DNA of 37,250 bases from Lachnospiraceae bacterium (GTDB taxonomy: Bacteria > Bacillota > Clostridia > Lachnospirales > Lachnospiraceae), in NCBI GenBank assembly GCA_017484135.1, contig JAFUTQ010000001.1:1-37250 (forward strand), given 5' to 3'. A program made the position numbers and the translations under genes. Below the pieces are notes generated by a model. The model had not been told where the DNA came from. It was given only the letters and a program-made list of their open reading frames with translations, and searched no databases. Below are positions 3 to 37,250 of this stretch, piece after piece (the first letter of the stretch is position 1; every line of letters begins with the position of its first letter).

Positions 3-3000
3 TATTATTACAATGATGCGGAGTATCAGGATGAGAATAAGGTTGATGCGCCTACCAAGGTAGGAACCTATTACCTGAAGATTGAAGGAAAAGACAATTA
101 TGACGGGACTTTGCAGGGAGAGGAGTACAAATTCTCCATTGTCAAGCAGGGCTTCGCGAATTGTAAGGTTTTTCTGACTTATGGCAGCGTAGAAGATCGG
201 CAGTTGTCAACCGGAAATACAATTTCGATAGACTATCGAACAGGTGGGATAAAACTGCGGGTAACGAAGGTTCAGGATCCAAAAGGGAATGACCTGTCGT
301 GGGCCACGGATTATACATATCAGATCTTTACAGATGAGGCCTGTGCAAATGAGGCAACGTATGATAGCCCCTTTTATGTGGCGGAGAATGCCGGCACCTA
401 CTATATTCGGGTGGAACCGACAGAAACCAGTAATTATGAGGGTGTAGTGATCTTCCAGTTTGTAGTGAACCCGGCAACGGTTAAGCCGAGTGATCTGAAA
501 ATTGTCATTCCGGATCAGACCTATACGGGCAGTGAAATCATTCCGAATCAGGACACGATGACTGTGACCTACGCCGGAAATACGATTTCGAAAGATTCCT
601 ACGACATCGTGTCTGTGGAGAATAATATTGCAATCCAAAGCAAGGACGATACCGGAGCCAAACGTCCTACCGTGAAGATCCGGCTGAAGGGAAATTACCA
701 GCTGAGCGGTGGAAGCGACACCGTGGCAGAGGGCTATTTCAGTATTGTTCCGAAAAAAATCACAGAGTGCCAGTGCAACCTGGTGGAAGGGTCTTCCATA
801 TACGATGAAAAGGAAGCAAAAAAAACCTATACCGGCGCAGTGCTGAAACCGACGATCATTCTCAGTGATGGAAGCAGAACGCTGGTTGCGGGAACGGACT
901 ATCAGATCGACGGCTATTATTCGGATGCTGGCTGCACGGTAAAGATCGATGGAGAACCGAAGAATGCAGGCAACTATTATGTTAAGATTACCGGATTGGG
1001 GAACTATGCAGATTCCAATTCGAGCATAAAAGCCCTCTATGTCATTGCACAGAAATCCCTTGATGACAGTGAAATCAGCTGCAGCGTGAACAATCCGTCC
1101 TATACGGGAGAGTCCGTGGTAAACCGCGCAGAGGATCCGCTGGTGCTGGTATTACGGGATCAGGATACCGAGTTAGTTGAGGGAACAGACTATCAGATTG
1201 TCGACTATTACCAGGATGCGAATTGTACACAGACGAGAGATACGATAAATTCCGGCGCTGTATATGTCAAAATTACCGGAAAAGGAAATTATATCGGTAA
1301 CAGGGTACAGTGCTTCTATATCGGAACAAGTCTCACAGATAAGGTGGCAGCCTTTGATGTATCCGGGTGGACCTATGAGGTAAATTCGAACGGGGAGGAC
1401 GTATCGTATTACGAGGATATTCATGCAGAGATACTCGCTACCGTACGGGCAAATCTTCCGACGGAAGATGAGGATTCTTTCCGGATCACATATTACAAGG
1501 ATGCTGCGAGAACCGTTGCGGCAACGGACAGTGATCCGATTTTTTCCAGTGCCGGGACTATTTATTACCGTATTTCGGGCAAGGACGGCTATTATGACAG
1601 TGTCGACGGAACAGCGGTCATTGCGCAGAAGGATTTGTCAAAGCTTACCGGAGAGATTCTCGGTACCTATATCTATAATTATCAAGGTGCAGCGCAGACC
1701 GTAGCTGACTATGATAGCGGATTACAAAAGGGTGTCAAGCTGTATTCCTATGCAGAGGGAGACACCAAGTGGTTGCTGGACAATACCGGACAGAAGCAGT
1801 ATACGATCACAAACGGAACCGCATACACAGATGTGGGAACCTATAATGTTATTCTGCGGGCTACGTCAGACGGAAACTATACCGGCACAAAAACCCTCCA
1901 ATTCAACATTGAGCCGGAGGAATTAAAGAAAGTGCCGAATCTTAAGGTCGCAGTCACACCGGCTACCTACGCAAACATGGCGCAGACACCGACGGTCACG
2001 CTGACCTATGGCACCTCCGGTAAGGTGCTGGATTCCTCGAATTATATCGTGGAGCTGTATCGGGATGCGGCTTATACGCAGAAAGCGGACGATGAGGACT
2101 GTATCGATGCGGGCACACTCTATGTGAAGCTGACCGGACGGGGAAATTATATCGGCACGATTGATACTGCGGATTATCCGGCAACGGTGCAGGGCGATAA
2201 TCAGTTTGTCATTAAACCGAAGGATATCTCCACAGCGAAGGTCGATATTGAGGGCAAGGATTATGTGTACAGCAATGGGCTGCTGGAGTTTGTGGTAACA
2301 CAGGATTTCACTTCGACCAGTACTACCTATACCAAGAAGCTGACCGAGGGAACGGATTATACATATGAGGCATTGCAGTCCGGCTTTAAGGTAGGGGAGC
2401 AGCTGATTACCCTGACCGGACAGGGCAATTACACCGGCTCCAGAACCTTCAAATTCTATTATGCCGGCAATATCAATGATGCAAGTCATGCCACAGTGAA
2501 GCTGGGAGATGGCAGTGGTTCTGTTCAAAAGAGCTTTTCGGGAAGTGCAGTGACTCTGGCGGACAACGAGATTGTAGTCACGGATAAGAACGGAAACGTA
2601 CTGCGTACGGGAACCGAGTACAGTGTTACTTATACGGATAATGTGGAGCCGGGAGAGGCAACCGTAGCGATTACCGGAATCAAGTCCGCGCACTGGACGG
2701 GAACCTATTACGGACATTTTGATATCATCGGGGATCTCAGTGACTCGCGCTATACGACGATCACACTTCCGGATCAGGCCTATACCGGAAAGGCATACAA
2801 CACGACCGATCAGCCGCTGCAGAATCTGGAAGTAAAGTTTAACGGAAAAACCCTGACGCAGGGCAAGGATTATGAGATTGTCCAGTTTGATAATGCGACC
2901 AATATGTCGACCAACGGAGCGAAGGTTACGATTCATGGAATCGGCTATTTTAAGGGCTATGCAGAGAAGAATTTTTCCATTAAATACAATACCGCGAATC

Positions 3001-6000
3001 TCATCGTGAGTCTGGATCCGCTGGTATGCGATTACGATGACGGCAGAGAGATCAAACCGGAGGTAACCCTTCGTTATCCCACCGGAACCACCTATGACAC
3101 CTCCTTTACAGAGGGAGTCGATTATACGATCAGCTATCACAACAATGTGAATGTGTGCGCAGCAAACGGACTGGAAGGTCCTTATGTACTGATTACCCCG
3201 GTGGCAGGCGGAAAGCTTGCGGGCGGAAGTGTAACCAAGGCATTTACGATTCGAAAGATTGATATTTCCCAGTGTGTGATTTCGGGGGTAAGGAGTACCT
3301 ATACCTACACCGGAGATTTGATTCGACCGGATACCCTGCAGGTAATGAAGTCAGACGGAACGATCATCGATCCGATCAACTATGACATTGCATATTCTAC
3401 CGATGCAAGCAATCCGACGACGGCTCCGGCGGGATCGGTGGAGACCATTACGGTAAAGGGAAAAGGAAATTACTCCGGATCGGTGACAAAGGAGCTGACG
3501 ATTACCAAGCGGAATCTTTCGACAGCGGAGTGCACGATTGCCGATCAGTTGTACAGCGCAAGGGCGCTTACGCCGAATGTGAATGTTACCATAACGGATG
3601 AAAACGGAGAGGAACGGACGCTGACGGCCGGAACGGATTTTGTGGTAGAGACGTACGCGAACAATGTGGCTGCGGCCAATAAAGGCAGTGCGAATGCGCC
3701 GTATGCGCTGATCAGTGGAACGGGAAGCTGTACCGGGCAGGTTCAGGTAGAATTTAATATTAAAAAGAGAGCGATGAGTGAGCTGGTATATCAGCCGGTA
3801 ACAGATCCTCAGTATGTGCCGGGCAAATTGAGTTATACGCCGGAGGTGAAGGTTTACTTTACATCCGCAGATACAGAGCCGCTGACTGCAGGGGTGGATT
3901 ATCGGATTACCTATTACAACAACTCGGCAGTGTTGGCTGAGGATGGTATGAACGGTCCGTATCTTGTGATTGAGCCCACCGATACCTCCAATTTTGAGGG
4001 CAGTCATGTGATTACCTTCTCGATTTTGCCGAAGGATGTCAGCTCGGAGGACATCAAGGTGTCCTTGTCCGACACACTGGACACAGGCTTTGATTCGGCA
4101 AACCGCAATTATGTCTATAACAGAGACAAGGTGCCGTATACACCGACTGCTACGCTGACCTTTGATGACGGAAGTACCGGAACCAGACTGACCGCAGCGG
4201 ATTATGATATCAGCTATGAGAATAATGAGGAAATCGGCACTGCGTATGTGGTCATTACCGGACGGGGCAATTACTCCGGAGAGCGCCGGGAAGCGTTTAC
4301 CATCGGTACACTGATTGCCAATGATACGATTACGGTTACAGGAATCAGCAACAAAGTATATAACGGACAGGATACGACACCTACAGATATCCGGGTAAAA
4401 TTCAATGCAAAGGACGAATACCTTACCGAGGACGTAGATTATACCGTAGGTTTTTATCTGGATGAGACGTGTCAGAGTCCGGCAAGCCTTTCTGATATGC
4501 AGAACGCAGGTCGCATTTATGTTGCGATTACCGGAACGGCGGATGCCAATGCCGGCGGATATGTGGGAGCGGCAGTGATTCCGTACACAATTTTGCAAAA
4601 ATCGTTGACTTCTTCAGATATTGTGATCAGCGGCAACGATGATGTGAACTACACCGGAGAGGAGGTATATCCGAAGAATCTGCGGCTGACAGATACGACC
4701 ACAGGACGTGTCATTGATGCATCCCAGTATACGGTGCGTTATGAGAATAACGTGGATATCGGCACGGCATCGGCAACGGTGACAGCGACGGAAACCGGAA
4801 ATTATAAGGACAGTATCACGGTCTATTACCGTGTGACAAAGTATGATATCTCTGCAGTGGTAGCAGAGGCAATTCCCGATCAGATCTATACGGGGGACTA
4901 TATCATTCCCGAGATGACCATTTATGATAATGGCGTTGAGCTTGTGAAGGGACAGGATTATGAGGTGGTAAACGGAAATAACCTGCGGGCAGGCGAGTCC
5001 TGGGTAATTATTCAGGGAATCGGAAACTATGACCAGACAAAGCGCGTATACTTTAACATCATCGCCAACATGGAGGATGCGATTGTCGACGACATCCCGG
5101 ATCAGCTGTATACCGGAAAACCGGTTACGCCGGTTGAGCGGGTGGCATGCGGCGGAAATACGTTGCAGAGAGGTGTGGATTATACGGTAGCCTATGCAAA
5201 CAATACGGCGGTGGGAGATGCTTCGATTACGATTACGCCGATTTCGAAATACTATACGGGAACCATCGTGAAGAAATTTACGATTACCAACAGTATAGCG
5301 GGTGCCCAGATCAGCGTGACTCCAAATTCTTATCGTTATACCGGAGAGGCATATACGCCGGAGCCGATTGTGACACTTGGAGGCGTACGGCTGACGAAAA
5401 ATGTGGACTATACAGTGGTTTACAGAAACAATGTGAATGTCGGCACGGCATCTGTGATTGTCATAGGTATTGGCAAATATTCGTCCTCTAAGACGGCGAA
5501 CTTCAGCATTGTAGAGAGAAACATTGAAAATTGCAGTATTTACATGGTTTCCAGTCAGAGCTTTACCGGAAAGCGGATTACGCCGCCCGTGGTAGTGAAG
5601 GATGGAAATACAGCGCTGGAGCAGGGCAAGGACTATACGGTATCCTACAGCAATAATCTGGATATCGGTACAGGAACGGCCACGATTACCGGAAGCGGAG
5701 ACTATGACGGAACGGTGGAGAGGGAATTTACCATTGTAGCGGAAAATCCGATTAAGACGGTACTGGTACAGAATAAGAACGAATCGGCAGGAACCTTTGA
5801 TGTGCTGGTGGATGGTGCCGCGGAATATGTCGATCTGGTAAAGGTTCGGGTTTGGTCAAAGGGAGATCGGTCCGATGCTTATACCTATGAGGCATTGCGT
5901 GTGGACGGGGATACGTTTATCGCACATGTGAATGCGCAAAATCATGGTTACACGTCGGGCGCTTATCAGATTTTGGTATTGGCAAGCGGGCAGAACTACT

Positions 6001-6632
6001 CGGAGCATGAGGTCTATCAGACGGCTACAACCTTCAGCCCACAGGCACATGCGACAGGGTCGTCATCGGGAAATGCCCAGACGAACGGTGTGTGGCAGGT
6101 ATCCGCTGCAGGCTGGTGGTATCAGTACACAGATGGCACCTATGCAGCAAATGAGTGGAAAAATATCGACGGTACCTGGTACTGGTTTGACGGCAGCGGG
6201 TATATGGTGACCAGCTGGCAGCAGATCAATGGAAGCTGGTACTATTTCGGAAATGACGGTTGTATGAGAACCGGATGGGTGAAGCTGGGCGATGTGTGGT
6301 ATTATTTGCAAGGCAGCGGAGCAATGGCCACCGGCTGGCAGATGGTTGACGGAAACTGGTATTGGTTTGACGGCAGCGGAGCAATGGCTACTGGCTGGCA
6401 GCTGATTGACGGGGTATGGTACTATCTGAAGAGCAGCGGAGAGATGGTGACCGGCTGGCTGAAAATCGGAAACCGCTGGTACTACATGAAGGACAGCGGA
6501 GCAATGGCCACCGGCTGGCAAAAGATTGCAGGAAGCTGGTATTACATGTACGGAAGCGGTGTTATGGCAGCCGATACATGGATCGGAAGTGATTATGTAA
6601 ACGGATCGGGGCAGTGGACGCGCTCGCGTTGA
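3..6632 (+). CDS. Giant repetitive cell-surface protein, 5'-truncated by window edge
   Basis: The frame is open from the first bases, so the true start lies upstream; the TTG at 111 is an internal codon. About 2,200 residues are visible. I count 22 tandem modules of roughly 75-100 residues, each with the pattern Y(T)G...P...L..G.DY.V.Y.NN...G.A.VTI.G.GNY.G....F.I, which resembles MBG/YDG-type bacterial Ig-like modules. A unique stretch of ~90 residues follows, then 8-9 CW_binding_1 (choline-binding-like) repeats of the form GAMATGWQ-DG-WYYL to the C-terminus. The protein is therefore probably exported and held non-covalently on wall polymers; there is no LPXTG motif. The modules are diverged from one another, so they are old duplications. 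The Ig-like modules suggest an extended stalk or adhesin. The ligand cannot be told from sequence. Confidence 0.9.
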   Translation, partial: YYYNDAEYQDENKVDAPTKVGTYYLKIEGKDNYDGTLQGEEYKFSIVKQGFANCKVFLTYGSVEDRQLSTGNTISIDYRTGGIKLRVTKVQDPKGNDLSWATDYTYQIFTDEACANEATYDSPFYVAENAGTYYIRVEPTETSNYEGVVIFQFVVNPATVKPSDLKIVIPDQTYTGSEIIPNQDTMTVTYAGNTISKDSYDIVSVENNIAIQSKDDTGAKRPTVKIRLKGNYQLSGGSDTVAEGYFSIVPKKITECQCNLVEGSSIYDEKEAKKTYTGAVLKPTIILSDGSRTLVAGTDYQIDGYYSDAGCTVKIDGEPKNAGNYYVKITGLGNYADSNSSIKALYVIAQKSLDDSEISCSVNNPSYTGESVVNRAEDPLVLVLRDQDTELVEGTDYQIVDYYQDANCTQTRDTINSGAVYVKITGKGNYIGNRVQCFYIGTSLTDKVAAFDVSGWTYEVNSNGEDVSYYEDIHAEILATVRANLPTEDEDSFRITYYKDAARTVAATDSDPIFSSAGTIYYRISGKDGYYDSVDGTAVIAQKDLSKLTGEILGTYIYNYQGAAQTVADYDSGLQKGVKLYSYAEGDTKWLLDNTGQKQYTITNGTAYTDVGTYNVILRATSDGNYTGTKTLQFNIEPEELKKVPNLKVAVTPATYANMAQTPTVTLTYGTSGKVLDSSNYIVELYRDAAYTQKADDEDCIDAGTLYVKLTGRGNYIGTIDTADYPATVQGDNQFVIKPKDISTAKVDIEGKDYVYSNGLLEFVVTQDFTSTSTTYTKKLTEGTDYTYEALQSGFKVGEQLITLTGQGNYTGSRTFKFYYAGNINDASHATVKLGDGSGSVQKSFSGSAVTLADNEIVVTDKNGNVLRTGTEYSVTYTDNVEPGEATVAITGIKSAHWTGTYYGHFDIIGDLSDSRYTTITLPDQAYTGKAYNTTDQPLQNLEVKFNGKTLTQGKDYEIVQFDNATNMSTNGAKVTIHGIGYFKGYAEKNFSIKYNTANLIVSLDPLVCDYDDGREIKPEVTLRYPTGTTYDTSFTEGVDYTISYHNNVNVCAANGLEGPYVLITPVAGGKLAGGSVTKAFTIRKIDISQCVISGVRSTYTYTGDLIRPDTLQVMKSDGTIIDPINYDIAYSTDASNPTTAPAGSVETITVKGKGNYSGSVTKELTITKRNLSTAECTIADQLYSARALTPNVNVTITDENGEERTLTAGTDFVVETYANNVAAANKGSANAPYALISGTGSCTGQVQVEFNIKKRAMSELVYQPVTDPQYVPGKLSYTPEVKVYFTSADTEPLTAGVDYRITYYNNSAVLAEDGMNGPYLVIEPTDTSNFEGSHVITFSILPKDVSSEDIKVSLSDTLDTGFDSANRNYVYNRDKVPYTPTATLTFDDGSTGTRLTAADYDISYENNEEIGTAYVVITGRGNYSGERREAFTIGTLIANDTITVTGISNKVYNGQDTTPTDIRVKFNAKDEYLTEDVDYTVGFYLDETCQSPASLSDMQNAGRIYVAITGTADANAGGYVGAAVIPYTILQKSLTSSDIVISGNDDVNYTGEEVYPKNLRLTDTTTGRVIDASQYTVRYENNVDIGTASATVTATETGNYKDSITVYYRVTKYDISAVVAEAIPDQIYTGDYIIPEMTIYDNGVELVKGQDYEVVNGNNLRAGESWVIIQGIGNYDQTKRVYFNIIANMEDAIVDDIPDQLYTGKPVTPVERVACGGNTLQRGVDYTVAYANNTAVGDASITITPISKYYTGTIVKKFTITNSIAGAQISVTPNSYRYTGEAYTPEPIVTLGGVRLTKNVDYTVVYRNNVNVGTASVIVIGIGKYSSSKTANFSIVERNIENCSIYMVSSQSFTGKRITPPVVVKDGNTALEQGKDYTVSYSNNLDIGTGTATITGSGDYDGTVEREFTIVAENPIKTVLVQNKNESAGTFDVLVDGAAEYVDLVKVRVWSKGDRSDAYTYEALRVDGDTFIAHVNAQNHGYTSGAYQILVLASGQNYSEHEVYQTATTFSPQAHATGSSSGNAQTNGVWQVSAAGWWYQYTDGTYAANEWKNIDGTWYWFDGSGYMVTSWQQINGSWYYFGNDGCMRTGWVKLGDVWYYLQGSGAMATGWQMVDGNWYWFDGSGAMATGWQLIDGVWYYLKSSGEMVTGWLKIGNRWYYMKDSGAMATGWQKIAGSWYYMYGSGVMAADTWIGSDYVNGSGQWTRSR

Positions 6633-30102: not shown

Positions 30103-30255
30103 CATGATTTGAGGGGCAAAAGGTTCCCAGCGCAACGCGATGGGAACACTTTGCACAGGAAATCTCCGCGGAAAAGCCGGCTTTTTCGCGAAGATTTCCC
30201 GTGCAAAGCGTCTGTGTCGGCTCCGCCGACAGGATCTTTTGCCCCTCAAATCATG
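30103..30255 (-). repeat. Structured three-hairpin repeat element, copy 2 (inverted)
   Basis: 153 bp. The 20-bp ends are perfect inverted repeats: CATGATTTGAGGGGCAAAAG at 30103-30122 and its complement at 30236-30255. Three hairpins lie inside: 30123-30147 (7-bp stem plus 3 bp), 30149-30208 (8+8+4+6 bp stem with single mismatches) and 30215-30231 (7-bp stem, 3-nt loop). Read on the minus strand it lines up with copy 1, including TGTGCAAAGTGTTC and GAACCTTTTGCCCC. It begins 2 bp after the sulfatase stop and ends 9 bp before the Nudix ribosome site. Confidence 0.85.
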
Positions 30256-32225: not shown

Positions 32226-32257
32226 GTATTGCATCATGCGATACAAAATTGTATAAT
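32226..32257 (+). promoter_or_regulatory. Promoter with palindromic operators of toxin-antitoxin operon
   Basis: TTGCAT (32229-32234), 17-bp spacer, TATAAT (32252-32257). Two palindromes overlap it: a 19-bp imperfect one centred on GCATCATGC (32226-32244) and ATACAAAATTGTAT (32241-32254). This suits autorepression by the antitoxin. Confidence 0.7.
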
Positions 32258-32281
32258 AAAAGTGAAAGGTGGTGCAAGGCT

Positions 32282-32578
32282 ATGGCAGTAAAAACAGCAA
32301 ATGTATCCGTTCGTGTAGAGCCGACCATTAAGGAGGAGGCTGAGCGCGTTCTTGACAGGCTTGGGATTTCTTCTTCGACTGTAATTAATATGCTCTACCG
32401 CCAGATTATTATGATGCAGGGCATCCCGTTCCAAGCGATCATTCCTGGTCCGATTGCTCGTGACGAGATGGATGAGGATGCCTTTGATGCGATCATGCAG
32501 CGTGGACTTGATGAGGTAAAAGTTGGAAAAGGTCGTCCGGCAGCAGATGTAATTGCTGATCTTCGTAAGGGGCTTTGA
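32282..32578 (+). CDS. RelB/DinJ family antitoxin
   Basis: 98 aa. The N-terminal ribbon-helix-helix segment KTANVSVRVEPTIKEEAERVLDRLGISSSTVINMLYRQIIM binds DNA and is diagnostic of RelB/DinJ antitoxins. The C-terminal half would wrap the toxin. The ATG at 32282 is preferred to one at 32249, which overlaps the -10 box. It ends 1 bp before the toxin ATG, so the pair is made from one transcript. Confidence 0.9.
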   Translation: MAVKTANVSVRVEPTIKEEAERVLDRLGISSSTVINMLYRQIIMMQGIPFQAIIPGPIARDEMDEDAFDAIMQRGLDEVKVGKGRPAADVIADLRKGL

Positions 32579-32579
32579 T

Positions 32580-32915
32580 ATGGAAAAGAGATATATCGTT
32601 ATCGTGACCAACCAAGCGCAGGAGCAGCTTGAAGCGACCAAGCAATACTATGTTTACAAGCTCCACGCCAAGGATGCAGCGCATGATTTTCTCGATTTGA
32701 TGGAAGAAACCTTTGCAGATCTTGAAGTCTATCCGAAGCGAGGGCGATTGACCGAGGAAGAACCATGGCGTAGTCAGGGGATTCGCATTAGACCGATAAA
32801 AACGCATAATGTTTACTATTGGATAGATGAGGTGGAAATGACTGTGTGGGTAACGGCGGTCATTGCCACACGGATGGATCAGCAGGAGCAGCTGAAAAAA
32901 ATAAAAATGAAGTGA
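32580..32915 (+). CDS. RelE/ParE family toxin
   Basis: 111 aa. Small RelE/ParE-fold protein: VTNQAQEQLEATKQYYVYKLHAKDAAHDFLDLMEETFADLEVYPKRGRL...RSQGIRIRPIKTHNVYYWIDEVEMTVWVTAVIATRMD. The pattern (helix pair, then beta-sheet with IRPIKTHNVYYWID) is typical. RelE members cut mRNA on the ribosome and ParE members poison gyrase; the sequence does not decide which. It is paired with the preceding antitoxin and followed by a terminator hairpin. Confidence 0.87.
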   Translation: MEKRYIVIVTNQAQEQLEATKQYYVYKLHAKDAAHDFLDLMEETFADLEVYPKRGRLTEEEPWRSQGIRIRPIKTHNVYYWIDEVEMTVWVTAVIATRMDQQEQLKKIKMK

Positions 32916-33015: not shown

Positions 33016-35027
33016 CTACCGAACCCATTCTCCGTTCGCATTGACGCGGCAACTGCCGATTTTGGTGTTGACCGCCATCTTGCCGGACTCATAGCTGTAG
33101 TAGTACTTTCCGCCTACGCTGTACCAGCCGGTTCTCATTGCGCCGTCGGTACCAAGATAATACCATGCACCGCCGTCACTGAGCCAGCCCGTCTGCATTG
33201 CGCCGCTTGCATCCATGTAGTACCATTTACCTCCGTCATTGACCCATCCGGTCTGCATTGCACCGCTGGCGTTGGTGTAATACCATGCGCCACCGACATT
33301 GATCCAACCGATCTGCATTGCACCACTGGCATTCATGTAGTACCAGGTGCCGCCATCGTTGACCCATCCGGTCTGCATCGCGCCGCTGCCGCTGGTGTAG
33401 TACCAGGTGCCGCCGTCGTTGACCCATCCGGTCTGCATCACGCCGCTTCCGCTGGTGTAGTACCAGGTGCCGCCGTCGTTGATCCAGCCCGTCTGCATTG
33501 CGCCGCTCGCGTCGGTGTAATACCATCCGGTTCCGTCATTGATCCATCCGGTCTCTGCCACACCGTTTGCATCGTTGTAATGCCAGGTTCCGCCCTCCTG
33601 TACCCAGCCGGTCTGTTTTGTGCCTGATGTGGTCTGGGTTGAGGTCTGGTTATTGGTTGAGGTCTGTCCTGCGCTCTGGTTGCTGCCTGAGGTCTGACTT
33701 GAGTTCTGGTTCGCGCTCTGGCCAGGCTGCTCCGGGGAATCGGAGCCTGAGGGGGCATCTGGGTTCCATGTATTGATGTCTGCAAAGGTGAAGCCATGCT
33801 TCTTGGCATATGCTTCTGCTGTAGAGCCGGGGTGTCCGACGATGGTCAAACCTGTATATTCTGTTATTCCCGGTCCGTCATCGCCATAACCTACAGCCAA
33901 TTTTCCAATTTCTGTCGTACTGTTCGATATGATAATGCTAGTTAAACTGCTGCCGCCATACAATGCACCATCGCCGATTGATGTCACACTATCCGGTATG
34001 GTAATGCTGGTTAGACTGCTACAGCCAGAAAATGCATACGAGCCGATTGATGTCACACTATCCGGTATGGTAATGCTGGTTAAGCTGCTACAGCCTACAA
34101 ATGCAATATAGCCGATTGATGTCACAGTATTTGGTATCGCATAGGAGCCTGTTTTTCCCACCGGACATTTTATAAGCGTGGTTTTATCTTTCTTCAACAA
34201 TACCCCATCATCAGATACATAGTTGTGATTGCCGGAATCTACCTCGATAGTGGTTAAACTACTACAGTCCCAAAATGTACTCTCGCTGATTGATATCACA
34301 CTATCCGGTATGGTAATGTTGGTTAGACTTCTACAGCCATAAAATGCACCATCGCCGATTGATGTCACACTATTTCCTATGGTCACGCTTCTTAGATTCG
34401 TACATCCCCCAAATGCGAAGTCGCCGATTGATGTCACACTATTCGGTATGGTAATGCTGGTTAAACTACTACAGCCATTAATGCATCCCAGCCGATTGAT
34501 GTCACACTATTCGGTATGGTAATGCTGGCTAAACTGCTACAGCCATTAAATGCACCATCGCCGATTGATGTCACGCTATTCCCTATGGTTACGCTTCTTA
34601 GATTCGTACATCCCCCAAATGCCCAATTGCCGATTTCTTTCACACTATCCGGTATGGTAATGCTGGTTAGACTGCTGCAAACAGAAAATGCATCCCAGCC
34701 GATTGATGTCACACCACCTGTTATTTCAACAGTTTCCACCTTCTCTCTATGATCCTTAGACCATGGAGATGCCTTACTATAATCGTAAGTATCAGTATCA
34801 CTATCAAAAAAAACATCGTAGTCCGCCATCTTCCCCTCCCCGCTGATTGTCAGCTTGCCGTCCGAATCCAGCGTCCAGGTTACGTCAGCTCCTTCCGCTC
34901 CGCAGTCACCCGAATCGACAGTCGTTGCCGCATACGCCGTAAGCCCCCGCGCTCCAAACAGCAGGATCCCGACCAAAGCCATAAATGTCAGATATTTTGC
35001 TACACTTTTTTGTGTTATTTGTTTCAT
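33016..35027 (-). pseudogene. BspA-like leucine-rich-repeat, cell-wall-binding surface protein, frameshifted
   Basis: The intact product would be ~670 aa: signal peptide ([26 protein letters not shown]), a short beta-rich domain ([20 protein letters not shown]), about ten 23-residue LRR_5 repeats of the type [23 protein letters not shown], a Gly/Ser/Gln/Thr linker, then about nine CW_binding_1 repeats ([16 protein letters not shown]). The 5' frame (35027-34461) meets a stop after DALMAVVV; the rest continues in another frame (to 33016). A repeat copy reads cattaatgc at 34476-34484 where the neighbour at 34544 has cattaaatgc, so one base is missing. AAGGAGG precedes the ATG. No good promoter lies in the 190 bp up to the inverted repeat at 35217. 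Probably an adhesin; a sequencing slip is possible. Confidence 0.85.
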
Positions 35028-35216
35028 TTCAATCCTCCTTAATAAGATGTTTCGGCACGCGCCGTTTGCGCTGCCTGATGTGTATACTCCTTTTCCCCTC
35101 TTTCATTGGTAGTGTGTTTTGTGCTCCCCGTTGCCTGGATTTTTTCCCGCGCGCCCTGTCCCACAGCCATTTTTGCATGTTTTTTTGCGTCCCCTCCTCC
35201 GACTGTGAATAAATTG

Positions 35217-35249
35217 ACCCCTTTTCGCAGATATCTATAATCTACGAAA
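35217..35249 (+). repeat. Left 33-bp inverted repeat, recombinase core-type site
   Basis: Arms TTTCGCAGAT (35223-35232) and ATCTACGAAA (35240-35249) are inverted to each other (9/10) around the 7-bp spacer ATCTATA. The whole 33 bp matches the complement of 36724-36756 at 29 positions. Confidence 0.8.
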
Positions 35250-35293
35250 AAATCCCTGCGAACGGCTGAAATTCGGACTTTCGGAAAATTCAC

Positions 35294-36477
35294 TCACGCC
35301 GTCTGACCCACATTTTGACCCCTTATAGCTTCTAATGAGTTTGATAAATTGTTGAGAAGAGCACGCTTGATCTCCATCGAGGGATGCACATACCGGTTCA
35401 GTGTGATATTGACATTGGAATGTCCCAGAAGCTCACTTAAGCTCTTGGCGTCAAACCCGCTGTTCATGCAGTTGGTGGCAAAGGTATGCCGGAGAATATG
35501 CGCGTTGTGCTTTTTGATTCCGGCAGAGGACAGCACCTTCTGAAACTGATACTGGAAGGTTCTCGGGTCCGCGGCTCTCGAATCCGAAATGACATAGCCG
35601 TCCTTCCTTTGAAATGCAGTCAGATACGGGATCATGCGATCCGGCAGCGGGATGACCCGTTTGGAAAAGCTGCTCTTCGGCGATCCTTCCATCAGCATGG
35701 TCCTGGTCTGCTGTCCCTCTACCGGGAGTCTCTGAACCGTACGGTTCACACACAGAAGCTTATTTTCCAGATCAATATCACTCCACTTGAGCGCGCAGAC
35801 TTCTCCCAGCCGAAGCCCGGTGCTTAAGCACAGCAAGATCCCGAATTTGTTTCGATCCATCTTCCTGCCCAGCTCAGTGAAAAGCAGCGACTGTTCGGCA
35901 CTTGTCAGGGATTCCACGGGCTTTTTGCGGGAATTCTTTTTGATGGATTTTGCAAGTCTGATATTTGTGTGATACTGTGCATTGTAATATTCCAGAATGT
36001 GGTTCATGACCACGTAAATGCTCCCTCTCACGCTGTCTGACAGCTTTTCCCCGGATAACTCCATAACCTCCCGGAGATCGATTTCCTGCCAGCCGGATAT
36101 GTCGCTCACGGATAATTGGCTGATTTTGGGCATCAGAAACGATTCATAGATGCGCTTGTACTTGCTGTAGGTGCTTGGTTTTTTGGATTCTGACACCTCA
36201 CCAAGCCACGCCTGCGCTGCATCCGCGAGCGGATGGCACATCCATCGGTGCAGCCTTCGAAATCTGCGGGAGCGCTTATTTCGCTGCTCGCAGTGTTTTC
36301 TGAAAGGTTCGCGCGGTGGATGGACAGCTCGTCCAAACGCTTTTGTTTGGCTGCGGCATAGGTTTTTGCATACAGTGATCTGCTCTTTCTTTTGCCTGTG
36401 ACCGGATCGGTAACACGGTATCTTGCCTCCCATCTTCCATCTTTCCGGTAGCGGATATTTTCTCCTCGTCTTGCCAT
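35294..36477 (-). pseudogene. Tyrosine recombinase/integrase, frameshifted
   Basis: The N-terminal frame starts at the ATG 36477 (GGAGG 7 nt upstream): MARRGENIRYRKDGRWEARYRVTDPVTGKRKSRSLYAKTY is an arm-type DNA-binding domain like those of Tn916-type integrases. Around 36240 the coding switches to the -1 frame, which then encodes the core-binding domain (ADAAQAWLGEVSESKKPSTYSKYKRIYESFL) and the catalytic domain with all key residues: Arg in STGLRLGEVCALKW, HILRHTFATN (H-x-x-R), LGHSNVNIT and the nucleophilic Tyr in LNRYVHP. The stop is at 35294. The most likely cause is a 1-bp deletion or consensus error; a -1 slip is discussed in findings. It lies inside the inverted-repeat segment and should act on those repeats. 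Confidence 0.85.
35304..35332 (+). repeat. 29-bp direct repeat, left copy (arm-type site candidate)
   Basis: 28 of 29 bases match 36507-36535. It contains TGACCC twice, 12 bp apart (35304 and 35316), and lies at the 3' end of the recombinase gene. Another TTGACCCC is at 35215-35222, beside the left core site. Confidence 0.75.
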
Positions 36478-36506
36478 GAAATTTCCTCCTTTTCCTGCTG
36501 GATTTT

Positions 36507-36535
36507 TGACCCACATTTTGACCCCTTATCGCTTC
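36507..36535 (+). repeat. 29-bp direct repeat, right copy (arm-type site candidate)
   Basis: Matches 35304-35332 with one difference and the same TGACCC pair 12 bp apart. It sits 30 bp upstream of the recombinase start codon, so binding here could also regulate that gene. Confidence 0.75.
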
Positions 36536-36628
36536 GGATCTCCTGCGAAACATGCAAATTTGCGCTACAATTGCACTGAATTTATGGATAATTCTATACA
36601 ATTCCATTCCGATTGTGGCGGAATTCTG

Positions 36629-36657
36629 TTGACATTTGTCGAATAATTGAGTAAAAT
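36629..36657 (+). promoter_or_regulatory. Outward promoter inside the invertible segment
   Basis: TTGACA (36629-36634), exactly 17 bp, TAAAAT (36652-36657); start near 36664. A run of 11 T's follows at 36693-36703. In the present orientation the transcript would cross the right inverted repeat and stop at the terminator at 36770-36814, giving ~150 nt. Confidence 0.75.
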
Positions 36658-36723
36658 TAAAAAATATTGAATGAAAAGGTTGTTTTGAATGGTTTTTTTT
36701 TTTATTTTGAGCGCGAAAAATTG

Positions 36724-36756
36724 TTTCGTAGATTATAGTTATCTATGAAAAAGGGT
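36724..36756 (-). repeat. Right 33-bp inverted repeat, recombinase core-type site
   Basis: Arms TTTCGTAGAT (36724-36733) and ATCTATGAAA (36741-36750) flank the 7-bp spacer TATAGTT, which on the minus strand reads AACTATA and differs from the left spacer by one base. Confidence 0.8.
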
Positions 36757-36769
36757 GCAGTCAAAAAGA

Positions 36770-36814
36770 CGCTTGTCGAATCCCCTGCGGGAGGGTTCGA
36801 CAAGCGCCTTTTTT
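36770..36814 (+). terminator. Intrinsic terminator just outside the invertible segment
   Basis: CGCTTGTCGAA (36770-36780) pairs perfectly with TTCGACAAGCG (36796-36806), with CCC/GGG pairing inside, followed by CC and six T's. Confidence 0.9.
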
Positions 36815-36993
36815 GGCGGATATTAATTAATAAAAATTTAAGAAAGATTAACAGAGTTTCATTTGTTAAGAGCCCTCCTCCTGTGTTACACTGGTTGTAG
36901 TTTCATCTTGGTCTGAATTCACTGGCGATTCGCCGCATTTTCCAAGTATGCCAAAACTTTTTATCTTTTTTCAAATCACGAGGAGGACAATCT

Positions 36994-37250
36994 ATGACAC
37001 AAAAAAACATTTCTGCTGATTTCCGGCAAACCTTACAGGATGCCACCGGAGCTATCGATTACAATTATCTCAATGACTACATGTTCCGCGCTGTCCTGCA
37101 GACCGACCAGACCGCACTCAAGGGGCTGGTCAGCGCAGTTCTACACTTACCAATGGATGAGATCTCATCTCTTGAGATTATGAATCCCATCGAGTTGGGC
37201 AAGTCCATCGACAACAAGACGTTCATCCTCGACATCCGGGTAAGTCTGAA
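36994..37250 (+). CDS. Rpn/PD-(D/E)XK nuclease family transposase, 3'-truncated by window edge
   Basis: The first 85 residues are visible: MTQKNISADFRQTLQDATGA, then NDYMFRAVLQTDQTALKGLVSAVLHLPMDEISSLEIMNPIELG and FILDIRV. NDYMF near the start and the FILDI(R/K)V strand carrying the catalytic Asp are hallmarks of the Rpn family of recombination-promoting nucleases (PD-(D/E)XK fold), often labelled transposases and common in many copies in Lachnospiraceae. GAGGAGG lies about 9 nt before the ATG. It runs off the window, so completeness is unknown. Confidence 0.85.
   Translation, partial: MTQKNISADFRQTLQDATGAIDYNYLNDYMFRAVLQTDQTALKGLVSAVLHLPMDEISSLEIMNPIELGKSIDNKTFILDIRVSL

What the first reader, a model, noticed from the sequence alone, without database searches (positions are those of the whole stretch)
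35028..36814. Candidate phase-variation switch: invertible promoter/recombinase segment next to a surface-protein gene
Seen: a 33-bp inverted repeat pair bounds 1.54 kb with a tyrosine recombinase and a TTGACA-17-TAAAAT promoter aimed at the right end. A strong terminator sits directly beyond the right end, and an LRR surface-protein gene without an evident promoter of its own starts 190 bp beyond the left end. If inverted, the promoter's -10 would fall near 35316 pointing left, giving a ~280-nt leader to the surface-protein ATG. In the present state the promoter fires only into the terminator. Known: invertible promoters driven by tyrosine recombinases control surface proteins in gut bacteria. 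Inference: this is such a switch, shown OFF, with the unusual feature that the recombinase rides inside the inverting segment.
Basis: partly seen in the sequence, partly recalled or inferred. Interest (0 to 1): 0.88.

Follow-up and report, generated by a model that had tools for sequence, protein, structure and literature searches.

The report
Self-carried invertible promoter switch, probably decaying
A bacterium carries a small DNA segment that seems built to flip over and so turn a neighbouring surface-protein gene on or off, with the flipping enzyme encoded inside it; relatives share the design, but this particular copy looks damaged.

Summary
Imperfect inverted repeats (35217-35253 / 36720-36756) bound a 1.54-kb segment with a tyrosine recombinase and an outward TTGACA-17-TAAAAT promoter, between a terminator-like hairpin and a BspA-type LRR surface gene. 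Each repeat looks like a recombinase core: 10-nt arms round a 7-nt spacer.

Relatives decide what it is. Of 44 loci with homologous recombinases (window included), 36 have a repeat pair around the gene, against 2 of 30 other integrase loci and 0 of 132 shuffles. Left and right spacers agree in inverted orientation in 33 of 36 loci, although 35 loci show 34 different spacers: the signature of inversion. The outward promoter recurs (strong outward 24 of 35, inward 0 of 35, shuffled 2.1%). Homologous targets occur beside either orientation. So this belongs to a family of invertible promoter modules that carry their own tyrosine recombinase.

The window copy is probably impaired: a spacer mismatch, a frame break in the recombinase and one in the surface gene. 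Near a second surface gene of the genome the right part recurs without recombinase or left repeat. Inversion itself was never observed: no reads were available, and the one same-species comparison showed the same orientation.

The parts
35217..35253 (+). Left inverted repeat; core TTTCGCAGAT (35223-35232) - spacer ATCTATA (35233-35239) - ATCTACGAAA (35240-35249)
36720..36756 (-). Right inverted repeat; read on the minus strand: TTTCATAGAT - AACTATA - ATCTACGAAA (inner arm at 36724-36733)
35294..36477 (-). Tyrosine recombinase gene, likely start ATG at 36477; N-terminal domain and catalytic domain lie in different frames, the change falling between about 36325 and 36235; catalytic part matches PF00589
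36629..36657 (+). Outward promoter-like site TTGACA-17-TAAAAT, its -10 ending 62 nt inside the right repeat
36763..36813 (+). Terminator-like hairpin with T-run, directly beyond the right repeat
35304..35332 (-). Direct repeat copy 1, inside the last codons of the recombinase gene; probable arm-type site (tandem GGTCA motifs; inference)
36507..36535 (-). Direct repeat copy 2, just upstream of the recombinase ribosome-binding site; probable arm-type site (inference)
33016..35027 (-). Target gene: BspA-type LRR protein with choline-binding/cell-wall-binding repeats; reads in two frames (34461-35027, 33016-34437)
36484..36848 (.). Stretch (promoter, right repeat, terminator) duplicated at 95% identity upstream of a second LRR surface gene, genome contig C100:3437-3796

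Best explanation
The locus is an invertible promoter switch whose tyrosine recombinase is encoded inside the inverting segment. Mechanism (inferred): the recombinase binds two core sites (10-nt arms, 7-nt spacer) placed in inverted orientation, probably helped by its N-terminal domain on GGTCA-type arm sites just inside each end, exchanges strands in the matching spacers and flips about 1.5 kb. In one state the outward sigma-A promoter crosses the core site into the LRR surface gene (leader about 280 nt); in the other, the state of this assembly, it fires into the terminator beyond the right repeat. Shown: the parts, their recurrence in relatives, matched spacers, both orientations beside homologous targets in different species. 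Inferred: the strand exchange, arm-site binding and the expression change. The window copy is probably a decaying or locked member. (The confidence is for membership in this kind of switch, not for present activity.)
For: Repeat pair around the recombinase in 36 of 44 family loci versus 2 of 30 other Phage_integrase loci and 0 of 132 shuffles. Spacers equal in inverted orientation in 33 of 36 pairs, while 35 pairs show 34 different spacers. Best outward promoter score at least 17 in 24 of 35 loci, inward in 0 of 35, shuffled in 29 of 1400 (per-locus values). Homologous targets with opposite orientations: TnpB-like genes (4 loci one way, 1 the other) and DUF4379-type genes (1 and 2). Terminator-like hairpin on the side away from the target in 13 of 28 assigned loci and on the target's side in 0 of 28; in shuffled flanks 8 of 350. 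An independent locus, L015, pairs the module with another BspA-type LRR protein. Direct repeats near both ends, score at least 11 in 9 of 35 loci (8 with a GTCA core) versus 3.4% of 350 shuffles. A repeat pair also around the relative on named plasmids of Ruminococcus albus 7 and Vescimonas fastidiosa.
Against: No inversion was seen directly. The one same-species pair met (L125 and L068, 98.9% identical) has the same orientation; searches in three other genera (a fourth held no second genome that differed) gave no flipped sister locus. Window recombinase and target are broken in frame; spacers differ by one base. 8 of 44 family loci gave no pair of score 18 or more, two of them (L066, L118) cut short by contig ends, and two further full-length relatives that I did not fetch wide (L039, L047) also showed none. 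One of the 30 controls (L093) has a core-like pair of its own, so paired cores are not confined to this family. The own genome shows no contig with the flipped junction. No close DNA copy of the segment was found in the 7 other genomes of the genus.
Confidence: 0.88

Rival explanations
1. A miniature Tn916-like integrative element: recombinase plus ends, inserted beside the surface gene; the repeats are element ends with target-derived outer halves.
For: Nearest solved structures include the 'Int protein' of 6emy/6emz/6en0 (that these are Tn1549 Int is recalled); arm sites in direct and cores in inverted orientation resemble Tn916 ends (recalled); outer arms vary more than inner arms (45 versus 30 mismatches over 35 loci); the window's own spacers differ by one base; modules sit beside different genes in related genomes.
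Against: In such elements the two coupling sequences come from donor and target and need not match in inverted orientation (recalled), yet spacers match in 33 of 36 loci and in 6 of 7 positions in the window. No cargo, constant layout with an outward promoter and usually a gene reading away directly outside.
Confidence: 0.05
2. The switch design is right, but this copy is a dead remnant: recombinase lost by frameshift, sites diverging, target a pseudogene, orientation fixed. (A refinement of the best explanation, not exclusive of it.)
For: Frame breaks in recombinase and surface gene, spacer mismatch unlike the other family loci, second locus C100 without recombinase and with a single core.
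Against: The assembly is a draft (83% complete, 116 contigs), so single-base errors are possible; inner core arms are identical, promoter and the 29-nt repeats are well kept; imperfect repeats are inverted in C. difficile (PMC2784873 and PMC5386303, passages); a recombinase encoded elsewhere might act in trans.
Confidence: 0.55
3. The segment controls its target mainly by recombinase read-through: in the present orientation the surface gene is co-transcribed with the recombinase, and inversion uncouples them.
For: Recombinase and target codirectional with no terminator found beyond the recombinase-side repeat in 19 of 19 loci of this orientation.
Against: No inward promoter better than shuffled sequence upstream of the recombinase; the conserved strong promoter points outward.
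Confidence: 0.15

Closest known systems
Salmonella Hin (flagellar phase variation)
   Same: Recombinase encoded within the inverting segment (passages of PMC5903667 and PMC2784873); outward promoter inside it (recalled).
   Different: Hin is a serine recombinase of another family (recalled); sites and targets differ.
C. difficile RecV switches (cwpV, flg)
   Same: Tyrosine recombinase inverts segments with imperfect 21-bp repeats upstream of a cell-wall protein gene or the flagellar operon (passages of PMC2784873, PMC5386303).
   Different: recV is not near cwpV; segments are 195 and 154 bp; the cwpV promoter lies outside the inverting DNA.
Inverton group 139 / invertase group 35 of gut Clostridia
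   Same: Inverton group (32 of 33 from Clostridia) statistically linked to nearby tyrosine recombinases (PMC11892184, section 8 and passages).
   Different: The two example invertons of that group whose coordinates I saw span about 255 bp; whether any contains its recombinase, or belongs to this family, was not stated in what I read.
Tn916/Tn1549-type integrases
   Same: Closest solved structures by sequence for the window protein are Int proteins 6en0/6emy/6emz (Tn1549 recalled); core plus arm sites (recalled).
   Different: Those move elements; here cores with matching inverted spacers imply inversion.
hin next to csrA-tldR loci
   Same: Invertible promoter beside a TnpB-derived regulator in gut bacteria (passages of PMC13418256).
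   Different: Serine invertase, about 120-bp inversion; here a tyrosine recombinase inside the segment (a lead from relatives, not from the window).

Membership tests
Invertible promoter (inverton) switch | Inverted repeats that bound the segment | tested here: met
   family control
Invertible promoter (inverton) switch | Promoter inside the segment pointing out | tested here: met
   (consensus match only, no transcript data)
Invertible promoter (inverton) switch | Crossover spacers identical in inverted orientation | tested here: inconclusive
   Window: one mismatch in 7; 33 of 36 family pairs identical
Invertible promoter (inverton) switch | Both orientations observed at one locus | tested here: inconclusive
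   No read data. Assemblies: only one orientation in the own genome and in the one same-species pair; across species opposite orientations beside homologous targets
Invertible promoter (inverton) switch | Expression of target depends on orientation | not testable with these tools
   needs RNA data
Tyrosine recombinase (phage integrase family) | Phage_integrase catalytic domain | tested here: met
   PF00589, E 4.2e-25; solved Int and XerA relatives
Active, self-sufficient switch | Recombinase readable in one frame | tested here: not met
   two frames in this draft assembly; so I file it as a member of the kind, not as an active switch
Tn916-like mobile element | Differing coupling sequences at the two ends; mobility | tested here: not met
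   spacers match in inverted orientation in 33 of 36 loci, 6 of 7 positions in the window; no second copy of the whole segment in the genome

The most novel reading that the evidence does not exclude
Clostridia hold a large, apparently undescribed family of self-carried inversion modules (tyrosine recombinase, two cores, arm sites and outward promoter, mostly in 1.3-1.6 kb) that has been reused in front of surface proteins, exopolysaccharide genes and even TnpB-derived, probably nuclease-dead RNA-guided proteins; the window is a decaying case, and at a second locus a surface gene has been fused to the recombinase's leader.
Probability: 0.6. Interest if true: 0.75.

Novelty: new variant of a known kind. 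Interest (0 to 1): 0.6.

Why it matters
A module that carries its own recombinase, sites and promoter can be recognised from sequence alone and could be placed in front of any gene, so it makes phase-variable genes of poorly cultured Clostridia predictable. The family shows many natural pairs of enzyme and spacer, useful for finding out what sets the crossover specificity. It also points to a possible coupling of DNA inversion with TnpB-derived regulators.

Tried and rejected
Direct repeats flanking the recombinase (35304-35332, 36507-36535) were first taken as marks of insertion or deletion of the gene; similar GTCA repeats at both ends in several relatives make arm-type sites more likely. 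A Tn916-like element was considered and set aside because of matching spacers. A flipped copy was sought in the own genome, in the genus, in sister species of relatives (the genus held only the query's own genome) and in IMG/VR (no relative found with the patterns used): none found. Phage and plasmid collections gave relatives; of the 5 hits I opened 4 have a repeat pair, two of these on unverified faecal 'phage' scaffolds that may be bacterial, one of them (L125) 98.9% identical to a relative's chromosome. No tRNA in the window; no Rfam match at the locus (one search lists only two sub-threshold microRNA matches near 30142-30215). The taxon is unnamed in the data; Lachnospiraceae-like is my inference. 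Papers: 10 listing searches; passages read in PMC11892184 (and its section 8), PMC5903667, PMC2784873, PMC5386303, PMC13418256; the 2019 invertible-promoter paper (PMC6543533) is not held. None of what I saw described a tyrosine recombinase inside the inverting segment in Clostridia, but most subscription papers and all supplements were out of reach.

Choices that affect counts: of the hits, 36 of 63 non-self, 4 of 5 and 3 of 3 were fetched for the main tables, in rank order except that four (G171, G261, G248, G023) were skipped; one search had shown no pair for two of these (L039, L047) and two were cut by contig ends. The control was first run with wrong coordinates for 7 truncated loci and rerun with right ones; both give 2 of 30. 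L120 was dropped because its repeat pair looked spurious. In one search orientation was assigned to 28 of 36 loci; for L055 and L065 I overrode the automatic label after looking at the genes, L102 was left open, and 7 others (L068, L105, L110, L111, L112, L114, L120) were not assigned although one search had labelled L068, L111 and L120. The L103 spacer mismatch comes from an off-by-one centre. The promoter threshold of 17 was chosen after seeing the scores; one search gives 16 to 19.

Full report
What is there. The right-hand part of the window holds, left to right, a minus-strand surface-protein gene (BspA-type LRRs and choline-binding repeats), 189 bp of leader, an inverted repeat (35217-35253), a minus-strand tyrosine recombinase gene (PF00589), a promoter-like site TTGACA-17-TAAAAT pointing right (36629-36657), the second inverted repeat (36720-36756) and a terminator-like hairpin (36763-36813). 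Both repeats look like tyrosine-recombinase cores: TTTCGCAGAT-ATCTATA-ATCTACGAAA on the left, and TTTCATAGAT-AACTATA-ATCTACGAAA on the right read on the minus strand.

The recombinase is interrupted: relatives' N-terminal domains match the window in one frame down to about 36325 and their catalytic parts in another from about 36235, while 57 of the 63 non-self matches have no stop inside. The surface gene too is spread over two frames. A 29-nt direct repeat lies at both ends of the recombinase gene. A 365-nt stretch (36484-36848) recurs at 95% identity on contig C100, directly in front of a second LRR surface gene, without recombinase and with a single core, whereas the two surface genes themselves are about 75-82% alike in their main aligned stretches. 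The junction there falls at a sequence shared by the ribosome-binding sites of recombinase and surface gene, which suggests a deletion that fused the second surface gene to the recombinase's leader (inference from the sequence).

Test by relatives. Recombinase homologues at E 1e-45 or better occur in 50 of 299 genomes sampled from the family, the window's own included. I fetched 43 loci with such recombinases and added the window. Around 36 of 44 there is an inverted repeat pair of score 18 or more; around 30 other Phage_integrase genes from related genomes there are 2, of which one (L093) looks like a core pair of its own; in 132 shuffled flank pairs there is none. Centring the 36 pairs on the core shows equal spacers on both sides, in inverted orientation, in 33; the exceptions are L103 (off by one in register), L120 (pair probably spurious) and the window (one real mismatch). 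Among 35 pairs there are 34 different spacers. Equal within a locus and different between loci is what strand exchange between the two sites demands, and is not expected of an inserted element whose two ends hold unrelated coupling sequences.

The promoter is conserved in place and direction. In the 270 nt next to the repeat on the recombinase's 5' side, the best outward sigma-A-like site scores at least 17 in 24 of 35 loci, the best inward one in 0 of 35, shuffled sequence in 29 of 1400; means are 17.2, 14.0 and 14.05. The -10 of the best outward site ends 10-64 nt from the repeat. Direct repeats occur near both ends in a number of loci (score at least 11 in 9 of 35, 8 of them with a GTCA core, versus 3.4% of 350 shuffles; the same test for inverted repeats gives 3 of 35); I read the window's 29-nt pair as such arm-type sites for the N-terminal domain (inference).

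Both orientations occur. A gene reading away from the segment was assigned in 28 of 36 loci: in 9 on the promoter side, in 19, the window included, on the other side (two labels set by hand). Homologous targets occur in both classes: five TnpB-like genes (L052, L057, L060, L071 one way, L059 the other) and three DUF4379-type genes (L056 one way, L054 and L055 the other). A terminator-like hairpin was found on the side away from the target in 9 of 19 and 4 of 9 loci, and on the target's side in 0 of 28 (8 of 350 in shuffled flanks). Since a terminator is unlikely just before any gene, this last point is only moderate support. The simplest reading is that terminator, segment and target keep their order and the segment turns between them.

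Targets. Besides the window's LRR protein there is another BspA-type LRR protein (L015), a glycosyltransferase (L062), an Ig-like repeat protein (L064), a LoaP-like antiterminator (L058, just under its cut-off), PP2C proteins (L069, L070), a YARHG protein (L067) and others without a named family. Many of these fit cell-surface or envelope functions, as is usual for phase variation.

How it most likely works, and in what state it is. The recombinase inside the segment inverts it between the two cores; when the promoter faces left the LRR gene is transcribed with a leader of about 280 nt; in the assembled state the promoter meets the terminator. This is inferred from anatomy and relatives. For this copy three things speak for decay: the spacer mismatch, the broken recombinase and the broken target. 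Against finality: the genome is a draft of 83% completeness in 116 contigs, inner arms, promoter and the 29-nt repeats are well kept, and imperfect repeats are inverted in C. difficile (PMC2784873, PMC5386303; passages). I put continuing inversion of this copy at about one in three.

Results against. No flipped junction was found in the own genome; the one same-species pair has one orientation; sister-species searches found same-orientation or partial matches only; 8 of 44 family loci lack a pair, as do two relatives seen only. Reads were not available, so inversion itself is unobserved.

Known or new. A recombinase inside inverting DNA is known from Hin (passages of PMC5903667 and PMC2784873); tyrosine recombinases inverting segments in front of cell-wall and flagellar genes are known from C. 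difficile (passages of PMC2784873, PMC5386303); a Clostridia inverton group linked to nearby tyrosine recombinases has been reported (PMC11892184, section 8). The combination, self-carried, with arm and core sites, matched but ever-changing spacers and reuse before many targets, I did not meet in the ten paper searches listed under Tried and rejected; I rate it a new variant of a known kind.

Noticed in passing
L052:7513-8844, L057:9033-10406, L059:10123-11562, L060:7682-9040, L071:10076-11428: In five relatives the gene next to the switch is TnpB/Cas12f-like (PF07282; for the two tested, NCBIfam guided_TnpB end to end but below its curated cut-off). In the alignment the five lack the acidic residues at the three RuvC positions as I recall them, so they may be nuclease-dead RNA-guided regulators; a partly conserved stretch (around GGCATTAG...GGTATGCC...GAGCGAAG) follows the gene and matches no Rfam family at gathering score.
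   Followed up: partly
genome contig C100 (L011:485-3796): Second LRR surface gene placed directly behind the recombinase's leader, with promoter, right repeat and terminator kept but recombinase and left repeat missing.
   Followed up: partly
36994-37248; L103:8945-9898: A gene like the Rpn-family (PDDEXK) nuclease/transposases lies next to the switch in the window (cut by the window's end, just under the Pfam cut-off) and, 62% identical over 68 aa, next to the switch of L103.
   Followed up: no
32249-32915: RelB/ParE-type toxin-antitoxin pair next to the surface gene.
   Followed up: no
3-6632: Very long open frame (2209 aa, runs off the window) of repeated domains ending, by eye, in cell-wall-binding-like repeats: probably another large surface protein.
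   Followed up: no
L062, L064, L104, L113: Four modules are short (1.08-1.16 kb) with recombinases that match the window only in the catalytic part, yet keep paired cores and, in L064 and L113, a strong outward promoter.
   Followed up: no
L093 (G008:C90), around 1501-2004: A control integrase proved to have a core-like inverted pair with equal inner part: possibly an inverting recombinase of another branch.
   Followed up: no
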